Assembly: GCA_001304875.1 (NCBI GenBank)
Contig: BBZO01000013.1
Location: forward strand, 1-64,000
DNA length: 64,000 nt
Direction of reading: 5' to 3'
Source of the DNA: Clostridia bacterium UC5.1-2E3
GTDB taxonomy: Bacteria; Bacillota; Clostridia; Lachnospirales; Lachnospiraceae
Shown here: positions 41,048 through 62,115 of the stretch, piece after piece
Layout: the number at the start of each line of letters is the position of its first letter
How positions within the stretch are numbered: position 1 is the first letter of the stretch
The notes under the pieces: generated by a model
Told to the model about the DNA's origin: nothing
What the model saw: the letters and a program-made list of their open reading frames with translations, nothing else
Database searches by the model: none
Program-made: the position numbers and the translations under genes

Positions 41048-41497
41048 TGATCACAGTTAAAGAATTAAGAGCGGATATCTTTGAAGAAAAGATTTCATTT
41101 GTTTTCTTTAGGACGTCTGTCTCCCCGCATGGTAGAATTTATCATAAGTAAGAGGCCAGATTTGAAAGAAATACTTTCCCCAGATAGAGATATTTTGTTT
41201 TGGAAAGACAGGATTTCACATACAGAACGACATAAGAAGGATTTTATTTCCGAAAATGAATTTATGCGATGTTTTAAAGAAATCCCTAAAATTATTCATT
41301 GCCCAGATTATATTAGTGTACACCCCAAAGATAACAGTATTTCGTTTATAAAAGATCTTTCGATGCATGTTTCTGTCGCTGTTAAAATTTCTTCAGATGG
41401 AAAAATGTCATATCGTACCATGTATCCGCTGATGGATGCTCAGCTGAGTCATTATATTGATTTAGGGCATGCGTGGAAATATGATAAAAGCGATTGA
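41048..41497 (+). CDS. PBECR-like (Barnase/EndoU/RelE-like) nuclease-domain protein, AT-rich
   Basis: About 149 aa. ATG 41048 (MITVKELRADIF) probably continues, through one lost base near 41080, into KKRFHLFSLGRLSPRMVEFIISKRPDLKEILSPDRDILFWKDRISHTERHKKDF... CPDYISVHPKDNSISFIKDLSMHVSVAVKISSDGKMSYRTMYPL. The overall pattern resembles PBECR3-type phage-associated RNase domains; this is recognition by eye, not a search. Base and codon use are distinctly AT-richer than neighbours, suggesting recent transfer. A structured RNA cassette and a Fic gene follow directly. Confidence 0.5.
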
Positions 41498-41682
41498 CAA
41501 AATGCCGGGATACGGTATAATGAGAATACATAATTACTAAACTATATTGAATGAAATCTGAGGACGGAACAGGCAGCCGTCACGCCCTGGTGGTCTTAAA
41601 AGAGATGTGGGAGGGTCACCCCACCTGTTTCATTCAAGCGGTTGGCAGGCGATTTCGGTCGCCTGCTTTATTTTTGTTTTTA
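41494..41682 (+). ncRNA. candidate structured small RNA with own promoter and terminator
   Basis: Consensus promoter TTGACA (41494-41499), 16 bp, TATAAT (41516-41521). The RNA would start near 41528. TTGAATGAAA (41547-41556) pairs perfectly with TTTCATTCAA (41628-41637), enclosing about 71 nt with inner hairpins (GACGG/CCGTC; GTGGG/CCCAC). A terminator GCAGGCG/CGCCTGC (41645-41666) with a T-rich tail ends it. No coding frame inside. It could be a free sRNA or an attenuator leader for the Fic gene 70 bp further on. I do not recognise it as a known riboswitch. Confidence 0.6.
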
Positions 41683-41748
41683 TTTATGATAGAATACAGA
41701 TTAAATACGATAATTGGCGTTAAGGATGGCCGGGAAAGGGGGCAGAAT

Positions 41749-42492
41749 ATGGATTACGGAACGATACTGGAAAAGCGCGACCGTTTAAAAGCGCTGCGGT
41801 CGTTCATTCCGGAATACACTCTGCTTACATTTGAGAATGCATTTGAGATTGAATACACACAACTCCACTGCCATCGAAGGAAACACGCTGACACTGATGG
41901 AGACGAAGGTTCTTCTGGAGGATGGTATTTCTATCGGCGGAAAACACATGCGGAGATTTATGAGGTTGTGAATCATCAGAACGCTTACCGTTATGTGAAA
42001 GAATGCATAGAAAAAAAAGATGCCTCTGGACGAAAAAATTGTAAAAGATATTCATGCGATGTTGATGGAGCATATTTTTACGGGCGGGATTTATCGAAAT
42101 ATAGAAGTTTATATCTCTGGCGCGCAGCATACGCCCCCGCCGCCGAATGAGATGGATCGCCAGGTGAAAAATTTCTATGCAGATCTTGCGTGGAAAAGGA
42201 TCAGTTAAATCTGATTGAACTGGCGGCGTGGACGCACGCCGAGTTTGTACGCATTCATCCGTTCCCGGATGGAAACGGAAGAACTTCCCGGCTGATTATG
42301 AACTACCAGCTCCTTTTGAATGATTTCCCGGCGGTTTCTATTCGTAAGGAAGACAGGCTGGCGTATTTTGACGCGTTGGAGAAATACGCAGTAAACGGCG
42401 ACCTGACGATGTTTGCAGATCTGGTTGCCACGCTGGTGGAGACCCGGTTGAACCGCTATCTGTCCATGACAGCGGCGTCAGAATCGCCTTGA
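41749..42492 (+). CDS. Fic-domain protein, class II with N-terminal inhibitory motif (about four frameshifts)
   Basis: About 249 aa. Restored N-terminus EIEYTHNSTAIEGNTLTLMET holds the inhibitory motif (S/T)xxxE(G/N) as STAIEGN; the Fic active site is HPFPDGNGRTSR (about residue 170) with the catalytic His. Flap-like segment near HTPPPPNEMDRQ. Breaks near 41863, 41950, 42018 and 42192. Fic proteins AMPylate or otherwise modify targets, and the inhibitory helix keeps this type off until displaced. Base composition is nearer the genome norm toward its 3' end. Neighbouring candidate nuclease and RNA hint at an accessory island. Confidence 0.85.
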
Positions 42493-42541
42493 CATTCCGG
42501 CGTGACTTCGTGATAATACAATATATACCCCCACAGGTATA
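42489..42541 (+). promoter_or_regulatory. csoR promoter and CsoR operator
   Basis: TTGACA (42489-42494), 17 bp, GATAAT (42512-42517), then TATACC-N6-GGTATA at 42524-42541 over the start region. The same dyad with the same N6 spacing is at 43668-43685 before the P-type ATPase. Position and sequence suit a CsoR operator. Confidence 0.65.
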
Positions 42542-58105: not shown

Positions 58106-59990
58106 ATGAACCGGAAGCAGAAGAAGATGCTGGCCCGCATTATCGTCGCGGCCGTCATGCTCATCGCTCTTAATTTCATCCCGGTCACCGGAGTTTTGCA
58201 GTTTGCGCTCTATTTTGCCGCCTACCTGGTGATCGGTTACGATATCTTAAAGAAGGCCGGAAGGGGAATCATAAACCGGCAGGTGTTTGACGAAAATTTC
58301 CTGATGGCCGTGGCGACGGTGGGGGCCTTTGCCATCGCCGTCTATGACCGCAGCGGAGATTACAACGAGGCCATCGCCGTCATGCTGTTCTACCAGATCG
58401 GAGAGCTGTTCCAGAGCTACGCCGTCGGAAAGAGCCGCAAAAACATCACGGCGCTCATGGACATCCGCCCGGACTACGCCAACATCGAGTGTGACGGCCG
58501 CCTGGAGCAGGTGGACCCGGACGAGGTGGAGATCGGAACCGTCATCGTGGTGCAGCCCGGCGAGAAGGTGCCCATCGACGGCGTGATCATCGAGGGCGAG
58601 TCCACGCTCAACACCAGCGCGCTGACCGGAGAGAGCCTTCCCCGCGACGCGAAGGCGGGCGACGAGATCATCAGCGGCTGCGTCAATATGACCGGCGTGT
58701 TAAAGGTGCGCACCACCAAGGAGTTCGGCGAGTCCACCGTGTCCAAAATTCTGGAGCTGGTGGAAAATTCCAGCTCCCGCAAATCCCGCTCCGAGGCGTT
58801 CATCTCCCGGTTTGCGAGAGTTTACACCCCGGCAGTGTGTTACGGCGCGCTGGCGCTGGCGTTTCTGCCGCCCATCGCGCGCATCCTTTTCCTGGGACTT
58901 CCGGGGCAGTGGGAGCAGTGGATTTACAGGGCCCTCACCTTCCTGGTCATCAGCTGCCCCTGCGCGCTGGTGATCAGCATTCCCTTAAGCTTTTTCGCCG
59001 GCATCGGCGGGGCCAGCAAGGAGGGCATTCTGATCAAGGGCTCCAACTATCTTGAGACCATGGCCCAGACGAAATATGTGGTGTTTGACAAGACGGGAAC
59101 CCTGACCCAGGGCGTGTTCGAGGTGAGCGCGGTTCATCACAACCAGATGGACGAGGAGAAGCTTTTAGAGTACGCGGCCCTCGCCGAGTGCGCCTCCTCC
59201 CATCCCATCAGCCGTAGTCTCCAGAGGGCTTACGGAAAGGAAATCGACCGCAGCCGCGTGACGGACATCGAGGAGATCAGCGGCTACGGCATCACGGCGA
59301 AGGTGGACGGCATCCCCGTGGCCGCCGGCAACGGCAGACTGATGGAACAGCTGAAGATAGAATATAAGGAGTGCCGCAGCGTGGGAACCATCATCACATG
59401 GCCGTGGCCGGCGAGTACGCGGGACACATCGTGATCTCCGATATCGTGAAGCCGCACGCGAAGGAGGCAGTCGCCGGGCTCAGAAGGCAGGCGTGAGCCG
59501 GACCGTGATGCTCACCGGCGACACGGCGAAGGTGGCTGGCCAGGTGGCGGCCGAGCTGGGAATCGACGAGGTGCACAGCGATCTGCTGCCCGGCGATAAG
59601 GTGGAGCAGGTGGAGGCCCTGTTAAACGAGAAACCCCAGAAGGCGAAGCTGGCGTTCGTGGGCGACGGCATCAACGACGCTCCGGTGCTGTCCCGCGCCG
59701 ACATCGGCATCGCCATGGGAGCCATGGGCTCCGACGCGGCCATTGAGGCGGCGGACGTGGTACTGATGGACGACGACCCGAGGCAGATCGCCAAAGCCAT
59801 CCGCATTTCCCGCAAATGCATCGGCATCGTCTACCAGAACATCGTCTTTGCCCTGGCAATCAAATTCGCCTGCCTGGCCCTGGGCGCCGTGGGAATTGCC
59901 AACATGTGGTTCGCCATCTTCGCCGACGTGGGCGTCATGGTGCTGGCTGTGCTGAACGCCATCCGCGCGCTGCGGGTGCATAACCTGTGA
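58106..59990 (+). CDS. Zn/Cd/Pb-transporting P1B-type ATPase (two frameshifts)
   Basis: About 629 aa. TGES, ion motif SCPCALVISIPLS, DKTGTLT, SHPI, GDGINDAP; last helix FAIFADVGVMVLAVLNAIRALR with the Asp of the DxG signature that defines Zn/Cd-type pumps. No fused HMA domain; the preceding small gene supplies it. Breaks near 59393 and 59492. Exports divalent soft metals and is repressed by ArsR proteins on both sides. Confidence 0.9.
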
Positions 59991-60315: not shown

Positions 60316-60775
60316 CTAAATATTACGATTTTTTGCCGGTGTCAGCCGATTATATAAAATGGAGCTGATACCGGTATTTTTGTTTGTTTTTTCTTTTTTG
60401 AGCAATGTATAAATGGCTTGTCCTTTCGTGTAGTCGATATCAGATTTTGGAAATTTGTAGAGTCGTTATCGAAAAAGTTTCAATATGCGGAAACGCTTCC
60501 AGGCGTCCTTGAATCGAGGAAAAGTATCGGCTTTTTTTAAGAAAATCAAATGGGATATTTCCAGATCGAATTTGTTGATAGATCTTAGATCGGTCTCCTC
60601 TGAATATCCGCAGATCCCGCAGCTTATGCAGGCCTGTCAGATGATGAAATTGCGATGAGTCAAAAGAAATTTCCAGTTCGAAGATTTTTCCCTTTCGGCC
60701 TATAACAAAGCGGTAACGGGTATCCAGCAAATGTTCATAGGCCATGGCACAGGCAAGAAGTTTGTCCATCTGCAC
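60316..60775 (-). CDS. PBECR4-like nuclease-domain protein (frameshifted)
   Basis: About 153 aa. MQMDKLLACAMAYEHLLDTRYRFVIGRKGKIFELEISFDSSQFHHLTGLHKLRDLRIFRG matches my memory of the PBECR4 (phage Barnase-EndoU-ColicinE5/D-RelE-like) signature with the FHHLTGLHKL core. After a break near 60450 the frame RLYKFPKSDIDYTKGQAIYTLLKKEKTNKNTGISSILYNRL continues to a TAG at 60316. AT-rich relative to neighbours. AAGGAGG precedes ATG 60775. A structured leader with its own promoter lies upstream. Probable mobile or host-defence-type RNase; not verified by search. Confidence 0.55.
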
Positions 60776-60784
60776 CTCCTTCTT

Positions 60785-60997
60785 ATAAAGAAGACCGCCC
60801 CGCGAAAGCAGGACGGTTTTCTGAGCATTTTCTTTCGGTGTTTACCTACTCCGGTTTGAGGTTTCACTGCACAACCCCTCTCGTGAGCTCCGCATAACAA
60901 GGCAATCCGGTACGCTGTTATGTTTCTGCGCCTAAGACAGACACACGCTGTTGCCTGTCGGTGTATTCATTTTATACGATGTGGTTGGTGGTGTCAA
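60785..60997 (-). ncRNA. structured leader or small RNA upstream of the PBECR4-like gene
   Basis: Minus-strand promoter TTGACA (60992-60997), 15-16 bp, TATAAA (60971-60976). The roughly 175-nt RNA contains CATAACA/TGTTATG (7 bp), GACAG/CTGTC and GGGGTT/AACCTC pairings, and ends in ACCGTCCTGC-TTTC-GCGGGGCGGT (60817-60794) with CTTCTTTAT. CTTCTT-TAT-AAGAAG then covers the start of the Shine-Dalgarno of the gene. Attenuator, antisense partner or sRNA are all possible. Not a riboswitch I know. Confidence 0.5.
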
Positions 60998-61008: not shown

Positions 61009-61970
61009 TCAAAAATAAATATTAATCGACCGTGAATAATTCTTAAGCACCATCTGCGTATCCTCAATAAAATCCATGGCGTAGCGGGGCAGCGGATAAT
61101 CGTCCCTGTAGACCATGTAGAGGACATTCTCCGGTATGTCATTCAGCACAGGAAAGACATGAAAATCGGGATATTTCTCCGGTTCCCGGTGGTAGAGGTA
61201 GCACATGACCGGGGAGAGCAGGCCGGCGCCGTTTCCCTGGCGGGCAGTCTCGTAGATCAGCCGCTGTTCATCGCACTCCAGCACGTAGTTGGGCTTGGCG
61301 TGGCGGGAGAAAAAGCGGTCGATGCTTCTGCGAAGCTGGTTTCCGCTTCGCATGGTGATAAACGGCAGGTTTAAGATCTGTGTGAGATCCGCGCCGCCGC
61401 GCGCCTGAAAGCCGTCTAAAATATCCTGCCAGCAGTCGGGTAGTATTGTTTTAAAAGCCCGCTGGAGAAGCAGCAGAGCGTTTTTTCGCTGGTGAGCGCG
61501 ATCTGCTTTTCGTTGGGATTTGACGGTACGTTGATGCCCACGTAGAAAGAAATGCGCCCGGCCTGCAGATGCTCGTCCAGGGCCACGCTGTTTCCGTTGA
61601 CCAGCTCCACGGAGATATTGGGGTGGGAGGGCTGGTAAAATTTCCAGATCAGCGGGAAGAACACGGTTCCACGAAGCCGGGAGAAGCCGACCCGCAGCGT
61701 GGCGCGGCAGTTTTTGCTGATGTCCGAGAAGGCCGCCTGCATCTTGGCTTCGGCCTCCAGAATCTGCCGCCCGTAGAACACCATCTGCTCGCCCTCGGGG
61801 GTCAAGTGGAAGGTGGGACGCCGCTCAAAAAGCTGGACCCGGTACTCGTCCTCCAGCCGCTTGATGTGGCTGGACAGTGCCTGCTGACTGATGAAAAGCC
61901 GCTCCGCCGCCCGCGTCACGTTCATCTCCTCCACGGTTATGAGAAAGTATTCGATGCTCTTTAAATTCAT
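61009..61970 (-). CDS. LysR-family regulator (one frameshift)
   Basis: About 321 aa. MNLKSIEYFLITVEEMNVTRAAERLFISQQALSSHIKRLEDEYRVQLFERRPTFHL is the HTH; the effector domain passes through a break near 61430 and ends with NVLYMVYRDDYPLPRYAMDFIEDTQMVLKNY. Belongs to a different LysR branch from the other three. Start ATG 61970; 146 bp separate it from the divergent aldolase gene, which it likely regulates. Confidence 0.87.
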
Positions 61971-62115
61971 TTTCACACCCCTATTCACAATCATTTCGTT
62001 GTTGATTTTCCGGATAATATACTGTTAGACATTGTTATAAGTAGATGATACCATAAAATCATCAAGAAAAAAAGAGAAGATGCTGCAAATTTGCCGTATT
62101 TCAGGAGGAGAGAAA

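What the first reader, a model, noticed from the sequence alone, without database searches (positions are those of the whole stretch)
60316..60997. PBECR4-like gene behind a structured, terminated leader
The gene has its own minus-strand promoter, a 175-nt leader with several stems, a terminator-like hairpin just before the start, and a small stem over the ribosome-binding site. Together with the candidate at 41 kb, the window holds two PBECR-like genes each adjoining a structured RNA. This could be an RNA-regulated toxin or phage-derived immunity gene.
Basis: inference. Interest (0 to 1): 0.62.

Follow-up and report, generated by a model that had tools for sequence, protein, structure and literature searches.

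The report
drum RNA paired with PBECR4 toxin
The leader is a known but unexplained bacterial RNA ("drum") that, across gut bacteria, spirochaetes, plasmids and phages, sits with its own promoter and terminator just before a predicted RNA-cutting toxin gene (PBECR4), which makes it a strong candidate for the RNA antidote of that toxin; in this window the toxin is already broken and the RNA is still intact.

Summary
The leader (60820-60933, minus) is Rfam RF02958 'drum' RNA, 77 bits, a family without known function. The gene is PBECR4 (PF18813, 3e-21), but here a pseudogene: about 54 internal codons are lost. Of 80 PBECR4 loci fetched by protein alone (Clostridia, Treponema), 79 carry drum on the same strand, 78 ending 29-118 nt before the gene; 72 of these 78 have a strong intrinsic terminator in between (0.7 expected); 80 of 82 drums tested have a sigma-70-like promoter (5 expected). 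Covariation supports three helices, one a pseudoknot. Loci that lost the toxin often keep RNA, promoter and terminator; the drum-clade genes found without drum are all truncated, broken or degenerate. Other PBECR4 clades have other structured leaders, several of them two-copy tandem repeats, and RNA class follows protein clade. Drum shows no locus-specific pairing with terminator or ribosome-binding site, which argues against an attenuator. Best reading: a type III-like toxin-antitoxin family with a BECR-type RNase, drum being its RNA antitoxin. Inhibition itself is inferred, not shown. The 41-kb pair (PBECR3 + skipping-rope RNA) is also general: 15 of 16 PBECR2/3 loci carry that RNA just downstream.

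The parts
60969..60997 (-). sigma-70-like promoter of the drum transcript (TTGACA, 17 nt, TAAAAT)
   Evidence: 11 of 12 consensus matches; a similar promoter precedes 80 of 82 drums of relatives
60936..60959 (-). 5' hairpin GACAGGCAACAGCGTGTGTCTGTC, outside the Rfam model; a GGCAAC-type motif is found upstream of 77 of 101 drums
   Evidence: sequence
60820..60933 (-). drum RNA (Rfam RF02958): k-turn stem P1, long hairpin P2, pseudoknot PK1 (P2 loop CCGG 60910-60907 with CCGG 60854-60851), 3' end that can pair with the GGUU..AACC loop (PK2)
   Evidence: 77.3 bits; covariation in relatives; the k-turn of drum was shown to fold in PMC8191799
60794..60817 (-). intrinsic terminator between RNA and gene
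   Evidence: an equivalent in 72 of 78 relatives against 0.7 expected
60775..60780 (-). Shine-Dalgarno AGGAGG, 5 nt before ATG at 60769
   Evidence: sequence
60443..60769 (-). N-terminal part of a PBECR4 gene (pseudogene), 109 aa from ATG, with the HL.G motif (predicted active-site His)
   Evidence: PF18813 E 3e-21; aligned to aa 1-98 of relatives
60337..60453 (-). C-terminal remnant of the same gene in another frame (DIDYTKGQAIYTLLKKEK...); about 54 codons including the CRSFF motif lost in between
41081..41497 (+). companion pair: PBECR3/PBECR2 gene, 138 aa
   Evidence: PF18812 57.4 bits, PF18810 31.1 bits
41553..41631 (+). companion pair: skipping-rope RNA (RF02924)
   Evidence: 55.3 bits; near-obligate partner of PBECR2/3 in 120 genomes
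41645..41666 (+). companion pair: terminator-like hairpin followed by TTTATTTTTG
   Evidence: sequence

Best explanation
drum RNA and PBECR4 form a type III-like toxin-antitoxin module. A promoter makes the drum RNA in excess, because most transcripts stop at the intrinsic terminator; occasional read-through makes the PBECR4 endoribonuclease. The folded RNA (k-turn, pseudoknots) binds the protein and blocks its active site; when transcription is shut down (for example by a phage) or the locus is lost, the RNA decays first and the nuclease is freed. SHOWN here: near-obligate pairing, order, promoter, terminator, conserved pseudoknotted structure, RNA class following protein clade, and RNA outliving the toxin. 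INFERRED: RNase activity, direct binding, inhibition, biological trigger. In this window the toxin is dead and the intact RNA is a leftover or a solitary antitoxin.
For: 79 of 80 PBECR4 loci fetched by protein alone carry drum on the same strand; 78 end 29-118 nt before the gene, median 52; 72 of 78 have a terminator in between, 0.7 expected; the 79th is separated by an IS3-type insertion. RNA-first: 26 of 41 drum hits in 541 genome draws have PBECR4 directly downstream and 5 more a remnant; chance per pair per genome about 3e-5. Promoters 80 of 82, 5.3 expected. Covariation 90.2% paired against 68% shuffled and 33-42% slid; all 6 PK1 pairs change on both sides. Asymmetry: drums stay above Rfam's cut-off where the toxin is broken or gone (own genome 3 of 3), L095 has two extra drums with promoter and terminator but no toxin; the drum-clade genes seen without drum (L043, L047, L112, L190) are truncated or broken. 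Other PBECR4 clades have other leaders plus terminator, several with two tandem copies; RNA class needs 3 changes on the protein tree, the minimum. Also on Enterococcus/Streptococcus plasmids and two viral contigs.
Against: No experiment; no RNA-seq. The fold search gives no confident match (Foldseek best E 0.19; VIA Z at most 4.1, with RelE-type toxins mixed with unrelated proteins). No sequence relation to ToxN or CptN was found. Drum is one unit, not tandem repeats. Ten drums have no PBECR4 remnant at all, five of them in two related genomes in a shared phage-like context, so drum may have a further role. One plasmid PBECR4 (L. salivarius) has neither leader nor terminator. The window sits in a draft assembly with several single-base frameshifts in neighbouring genes; these cannot explain the internal deletion, but frame errors elsewhere are possible.
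Confidence: 0.72

Rival explanations
1. drum is a cis-acting leader (riboswitch or attenuator) that controls read-through into PBECR4 in response to a ligand or to PBECR4 itself.
For: It lies between promoter and gene, with a terminator before the gene; pseudoknots and k-turns are common in riboswitches; in the window a small stem overlaps the ribosome-binding site.
Against: No locus-specific complementarity of drum to the terminator arms or ribosome-binding site: own against swapped z -0.13, -0.07, -0.02. Drums with promoter and terminator but no gene exist, including arrays. The terminator lies outside the conserved fold and its sequence varies freely.
Confidence: 0.13
2. drum is a cofactor or substrate: PBECR4 processes drum, or drum guides the nuclease, rather than inhibiting it.
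For: Same obligate pairing; type III toxins do cleave their own antitoxin RNA (PMC5086642).
Against: RNA kept where the toxin is dead or absent; no variable guide-like segment was apparent in the alignment of 70 drums.
Confidence: 0.1
3. drum is an independent sRNA with another function that merely travels with PBECR4.
For: Ten solitary copies without any remnant; Rfam types it as sRNA gene.
Against: Fixed order and spacing in 78 of 80 loci from Lachnospiraceae to Treponema, with drums also at plasmid loci of Enterococcus; other PBECR4 clades have their own RNA in the same place, which hitch-hiking does not explain.
Confidence: 0.05

Closest known systems
Type III toxin-antitoxin systems (ToxIN, CptIN, TenpIN; AvcID)
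   Same: RNA gene before the toxin gene, one promoter, intrinsic terminator between them, pseudoknotted RNA, predicted endoribonuclease; found on chromosomes and plasmids (PMC5086642).
   Different: PBECR4 gives no Pfam match to a known type III toxin and no match to their solved sequences; the weak fold matches point to RelE/BECR toxins instead; drum is one unit of about 110 nt rather than tandem repeats of about 35-45 nt. A sister PBECR4 clade does have two tandem copies of about 50 nt.
drum RNA, Rfam RF02958
   Same: Full-length match; the k-turn of the family folds with Mg2+ (PMC8191799).
   Different: No function or linked gene was found in the papers read; the PBECR4 link and the PK1 covariation are reported here.
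PBECR domains of polyvalent proteins (Iyer et al. 2017, PMC5512222)
   Same: Predicted metal-independent RNase with an N-terminal-helix His and C-terminal Ser/Thr, in phages and mobile elements, also as solo genes.
   Different: That paper does not mention an RNA antitoxin ('RNA antitoxin' 0 occurrences).
pseudo-ToxI of phage TE
   Same: A phage-borne copy of an antitoxin RNA without toxin suppresses the toxin (PMC5086642); solitary drums in phage-like context in G165 and G387 resemble this.
   Different: Only position and sequence are known here.

Membership tests
drum RNA RF02958 | covariance-model score above the gathering cut-off | tested here: met
   77.3 bits against 43, full length
PBECR4 PF18813 | profile score above cut-off | tested here: met
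   77 bits against 27, first half of the profile only, gene broken
Type III toxin-antitoxin system | RNA gene upstream of the toxin on the same strand, own promoter | tested here: met
   78 of 80 loci; promoters 80 of 82
Type III toxin-antitoxin system | Rho-independent terminator between RNA and toxin | tested here: met
   72 of 78, 0.7 expected
Type III toxin-antitoxin system | antitoxin RNA is a pseudoknot | tested here: met
   PK1: 6 of 6 pairs compensatory, 91.6% paired
Type III toxin-antitoxin system | antitoxin made of tandem repeats | tested here: not met
   drum is a single unit; two-copy repeats only in a sister PBECR4 clade
Type III toxin-antitoxin system | RNA binds and inhibits the toxin protein | not testable with these tools
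   needs experiment
ToxIN / CptIN families | toxin related to ToxN or CptN by sequence | tested here: not met
   No Pfam match other than PBECR4 above cut-off; profiles A1 and A2 match no type III toxin chain in the PDB at E up to 5
ToxIN / CptIN families | ToxN-like fold | tested here: inconclusive
   not among the listed matches; all matches weak
TenpIN family | toxin related to TenpN by sequence | tested here: inconclusive
   no NCBIfam hit above cut-off, but whether that library holds a TenpN model was not checked
BECR-fold RNases | BECR fold of the protein | tested here: inconclusive
   model of pLDDT 91; about a third of 39 listed rows are RelE-type or BECR toxins (BrnT Z 4.0, HigB1 3.2, RelE1 3.1, RegB 2.9), all weak and mixed with unrelated proteins

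The most novel reading that the evidence does not exclude
RNA antidotes are the rule for the PBECR RNase clan: two orphan Rfam RNAs (drum for PBECR4, skipping-rope for PBECR2/3) and several undescribed leader RNAs are antitoxins or immunity RNAs. Some protect against phage MuF-PBECR fusion proteins that may be delivered by virions, and phages carry solitary drums as decoys against the host module.
Probability: 0.4. Interest if true: 0.88.

Novelty: new variant of a known kind. Interest (0 to 1): 0.75.

Why it matters
It would give a function to an orphan structured RNA family (and suggest one for a second), add a new toxin family and RNA architecture to the type III toxin-antitoxin class, and supply many ready modules in gut bacteria, Treponema and enterococcal plasmids for testing as plasmid-addiction or anti-phage systems. 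It makes a question open for years, what drum RNA does, answerable by one two-plasmid experiment.

Tried and rejected
Viral-contig pattern scans for drum: of the 16 hits only L208 and L209 were inspected; they look like chance matches inside another gene; the 14 hits of the second scan were not checked. Foldseek against PDB: no usable match; ToxN, CptN and other type III toxins were not listed, which proves nothing. PADLOC and NCBIfam: no meaningful match. Phage collection by drum-clade protein: none. Weinberg et al. 2017, thought to describe both RNAs, is not held. P1 and lower P5 were not supported in my first count; for P1 the column choice was wrong and the repeat count on A3 gave 91.4% paired. 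L236 (33.8 bits, below cut-off, no PBECR4 behind it) was discarded as a false drum hit. Attenuation by terminator or ribosome-binding-site pairing: tested, not supported.

Full report
What is there. On the minus strand, a good sigma-70-like promoter (60997-60969) is followed by a 24-nt hairpin, then by a full-length match to Rfam RF02958, drum RNA (60820-60933, 77.3 bits against a cut-off of 43), then by an intrinsic terminator (60817-60794), a Shine-Dalgarno sequence and an ATG at 60769. The gene is PBECR4 (PF18813, 3e-21). It is broken: relatives align to residues 1-98 and then, in another frame, to residues 153-191, so that about 54 codons, including the conserved CRSFF motif, have been lost. 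Nearby genes also show single-base frameshifts (for example the LysR gene 61994-61009), so assembly errors are possible, but they cannot account for the deletion.

The link is general. In the window's own genome there are three drum hits and two lie directly before a PBECR4 remnant. In 150 genomes of the family 15 of 19 drum hits have a PBECR4 hit directly downstream on the same strand. In a class-wide draw of 391 genomes 11 of 22 further drums do, and others have N- or C-terminal PBECR4 remnants. Together: 41 drums, 26 with PBECR4, 5 with a remnant only, 10 solitary. Starting from the protein instead, 80 loci were fetched from named genomes (Lachnospiraceae, other Clostridia, Treponema); 79 carry an Rfam drum hit, all on the same strand. 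In 78 the RNA ends 29-118 nt (median 52) before the gene, and in 72 of these a strong terminator-like hairpin lies in between, against 0.7 in shuffled sequence. In the 79th an IS3-type transposase pair sits between RNA and gene; in the 80th (L112) the 5' end of the gene is itself degenerate. Promoter-like sites precede 80 of 82 drums (5.3 in shuffles). Drums are also found at PBECR4 loci of Enterococcus and Streptococcus suis plasmids, on two viral contigs and in a genome of another class of the phylum.

The RNA is a conserved structure. On 32 diverse drums, three helices (P1, P2 and the pseudoknot PK1 between the P2 loop and a downstream segment) give 90.2% standard pairs against 68% in shuffles and 33-42% when slid, with 19 of 21 pairs changing on both sides. 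On a separate alignment of 70 drums the four core PK1 pairs are standard in all 70 sequences, with two to five pair types each, and a second pseudoknot, between the GGU..ACC loop and the 3' end, has 83% standard pairs against 60% in shuffles. These shuffles do not preserve relatedness; the slid control does. The k-turn of drum has been shown to fold (PMC8191799).

RNA without toxin, not the reverse. Drums remain above the Rfam cut-off where the toxin is broken or absent: all three in the window's genome (the C32 copy has lost its N-terminal region and has frameshifts; the C19 drum is followed by a resolvase), several in relatives, and two extra drums in L095, each with promoter and terminator. 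Five solitary drums in two related genomes (G165 and G387) share a conserved upstream segment that in G165 is the end of a phage-type endolysin gene; one G387 copy also has a MuF-like head gene nearby. The drum-clade PBECR4 genes without drum are truncated, frameshifted or degenerate (L043, L047, L112, L190). This is the asymmetry expected of an antitoxin and its toxin.

Other PBECR4 clades. Genes of other PBECR4 clades have, in the same place, other structured leaders followed by a terminator: a two-copy repeat RNA with a GTTGGCAGACAAC-like motif (including an Avibacterium plasmid with two near-perfect copies), a GGTCGG two-copy class, and others. The script found a strong terminator in 24 of 36; several of the rest have, by eye, a longer interrupted hairpin that the script does not score. 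RNA class follows protein clade: three changes on the tree, the minimum possible, against 17 in shuffles. One PBECR4 gene (Ligilactobacillus salivarius plasmid) has no such leader.

How it probably works. The layout, promoter, pseudoknotted RNA, terminator, RNase-like gene, is that of type III toxin-antitoxin systems, in which the RNA made in excess binds and blocks the toxin (PMC5086642). A cis-acting attenuator was tested: drum pairs no better with its own terminator arms or ribosome-binding site than with those of other loci. RNase activity is inferred from the family (PMC5512222); the predicted structure (pLDDT 91) gives only weak matches, many to RelE-type toxins. Binding and inhibition are not shown.

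Relation to the known. PBECR4 is not a ToxN or CptN by sequence, and drum is not a tandem repeat; it works like a type III system but is not a member of those families. No paper found in the library searched links drum or PBECR4 to toxin-antitoxin function; the original description of drum could not be read, so priority is uncertain.

The 41-kb pair. In the same 120 genomes 15 of 16 PBECR2/3 loci have a skipping-rope RNA 40-109 nt downstream on the same strand, including phage-like fusion proteins. Order is reversed relative to drum. This is a second, independent pairing of an orphan Rfam RNA with a PBECR nuclease, and deserves its own study.

Noticed in passing
window 41081-41680: PBECR3 gene followed by skipping-rope RNA (RF02924) and a terminator; in 120 related genomes 15 of 16 PBECR2/3 loci have this RNA 40-109 nt downstream, some as phage MuF/portal-type fusion proteins.
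   Followed up: partly
window 41731-42500: A Fic-type gene (HPFPDGNGR motif) behind the skipping-rope terminator, broken by several frame changes.
   Followed up: no
window 58106-59990 and 61009-61994: A P-type metal ATPase and a LysR regulator are each split by a frame change; either real decay or single-base errors of a draft assembly.
   Followed up: no
L095 2775-2886 and 3155-3267: Two solitary drum RNAs with near-identical consensus promoters and terminators in a row behind a drum-PBECR4 pair.
   Followed up: partly
L174, L176-L179: Solitary drums in two related genomes (G165, G387) share an upstream segment that in L174 is the end of a phage-type endolysin gene; possible phage decoys of the antitoxin.
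   Followed up: partly
L005, L026, L027, L030, L035, L182, L187, L189, L193, L234: Undescribed two-copy tandem-repeat RNA (GTTGGCAGACAAC-like motif, unit about 50 nt) before PBECR4; no Rfam family matched the loci scanned.
   Followed up: partly
L198-L201, L237: Another PBECR4 leader class (TTTGCTTTGTCAGGTAG...CTCCTGAATAGG), perhaps a distant drum relative (L198 34 bits in Rfam scan, L237 18 bits with model R1).
   Followed up: no
L231: On an Enterococcus faecalis plasmid the drum-PBECR4 pair stands next to an AbiH-family gene, an anti-phage context.
   Followed up: no
L151 2795-2845: A DUF3800-XI RNA (RF02975) lies downstream of a drum-PBECR4 locus in a Treponema genome.
   Followed up: no
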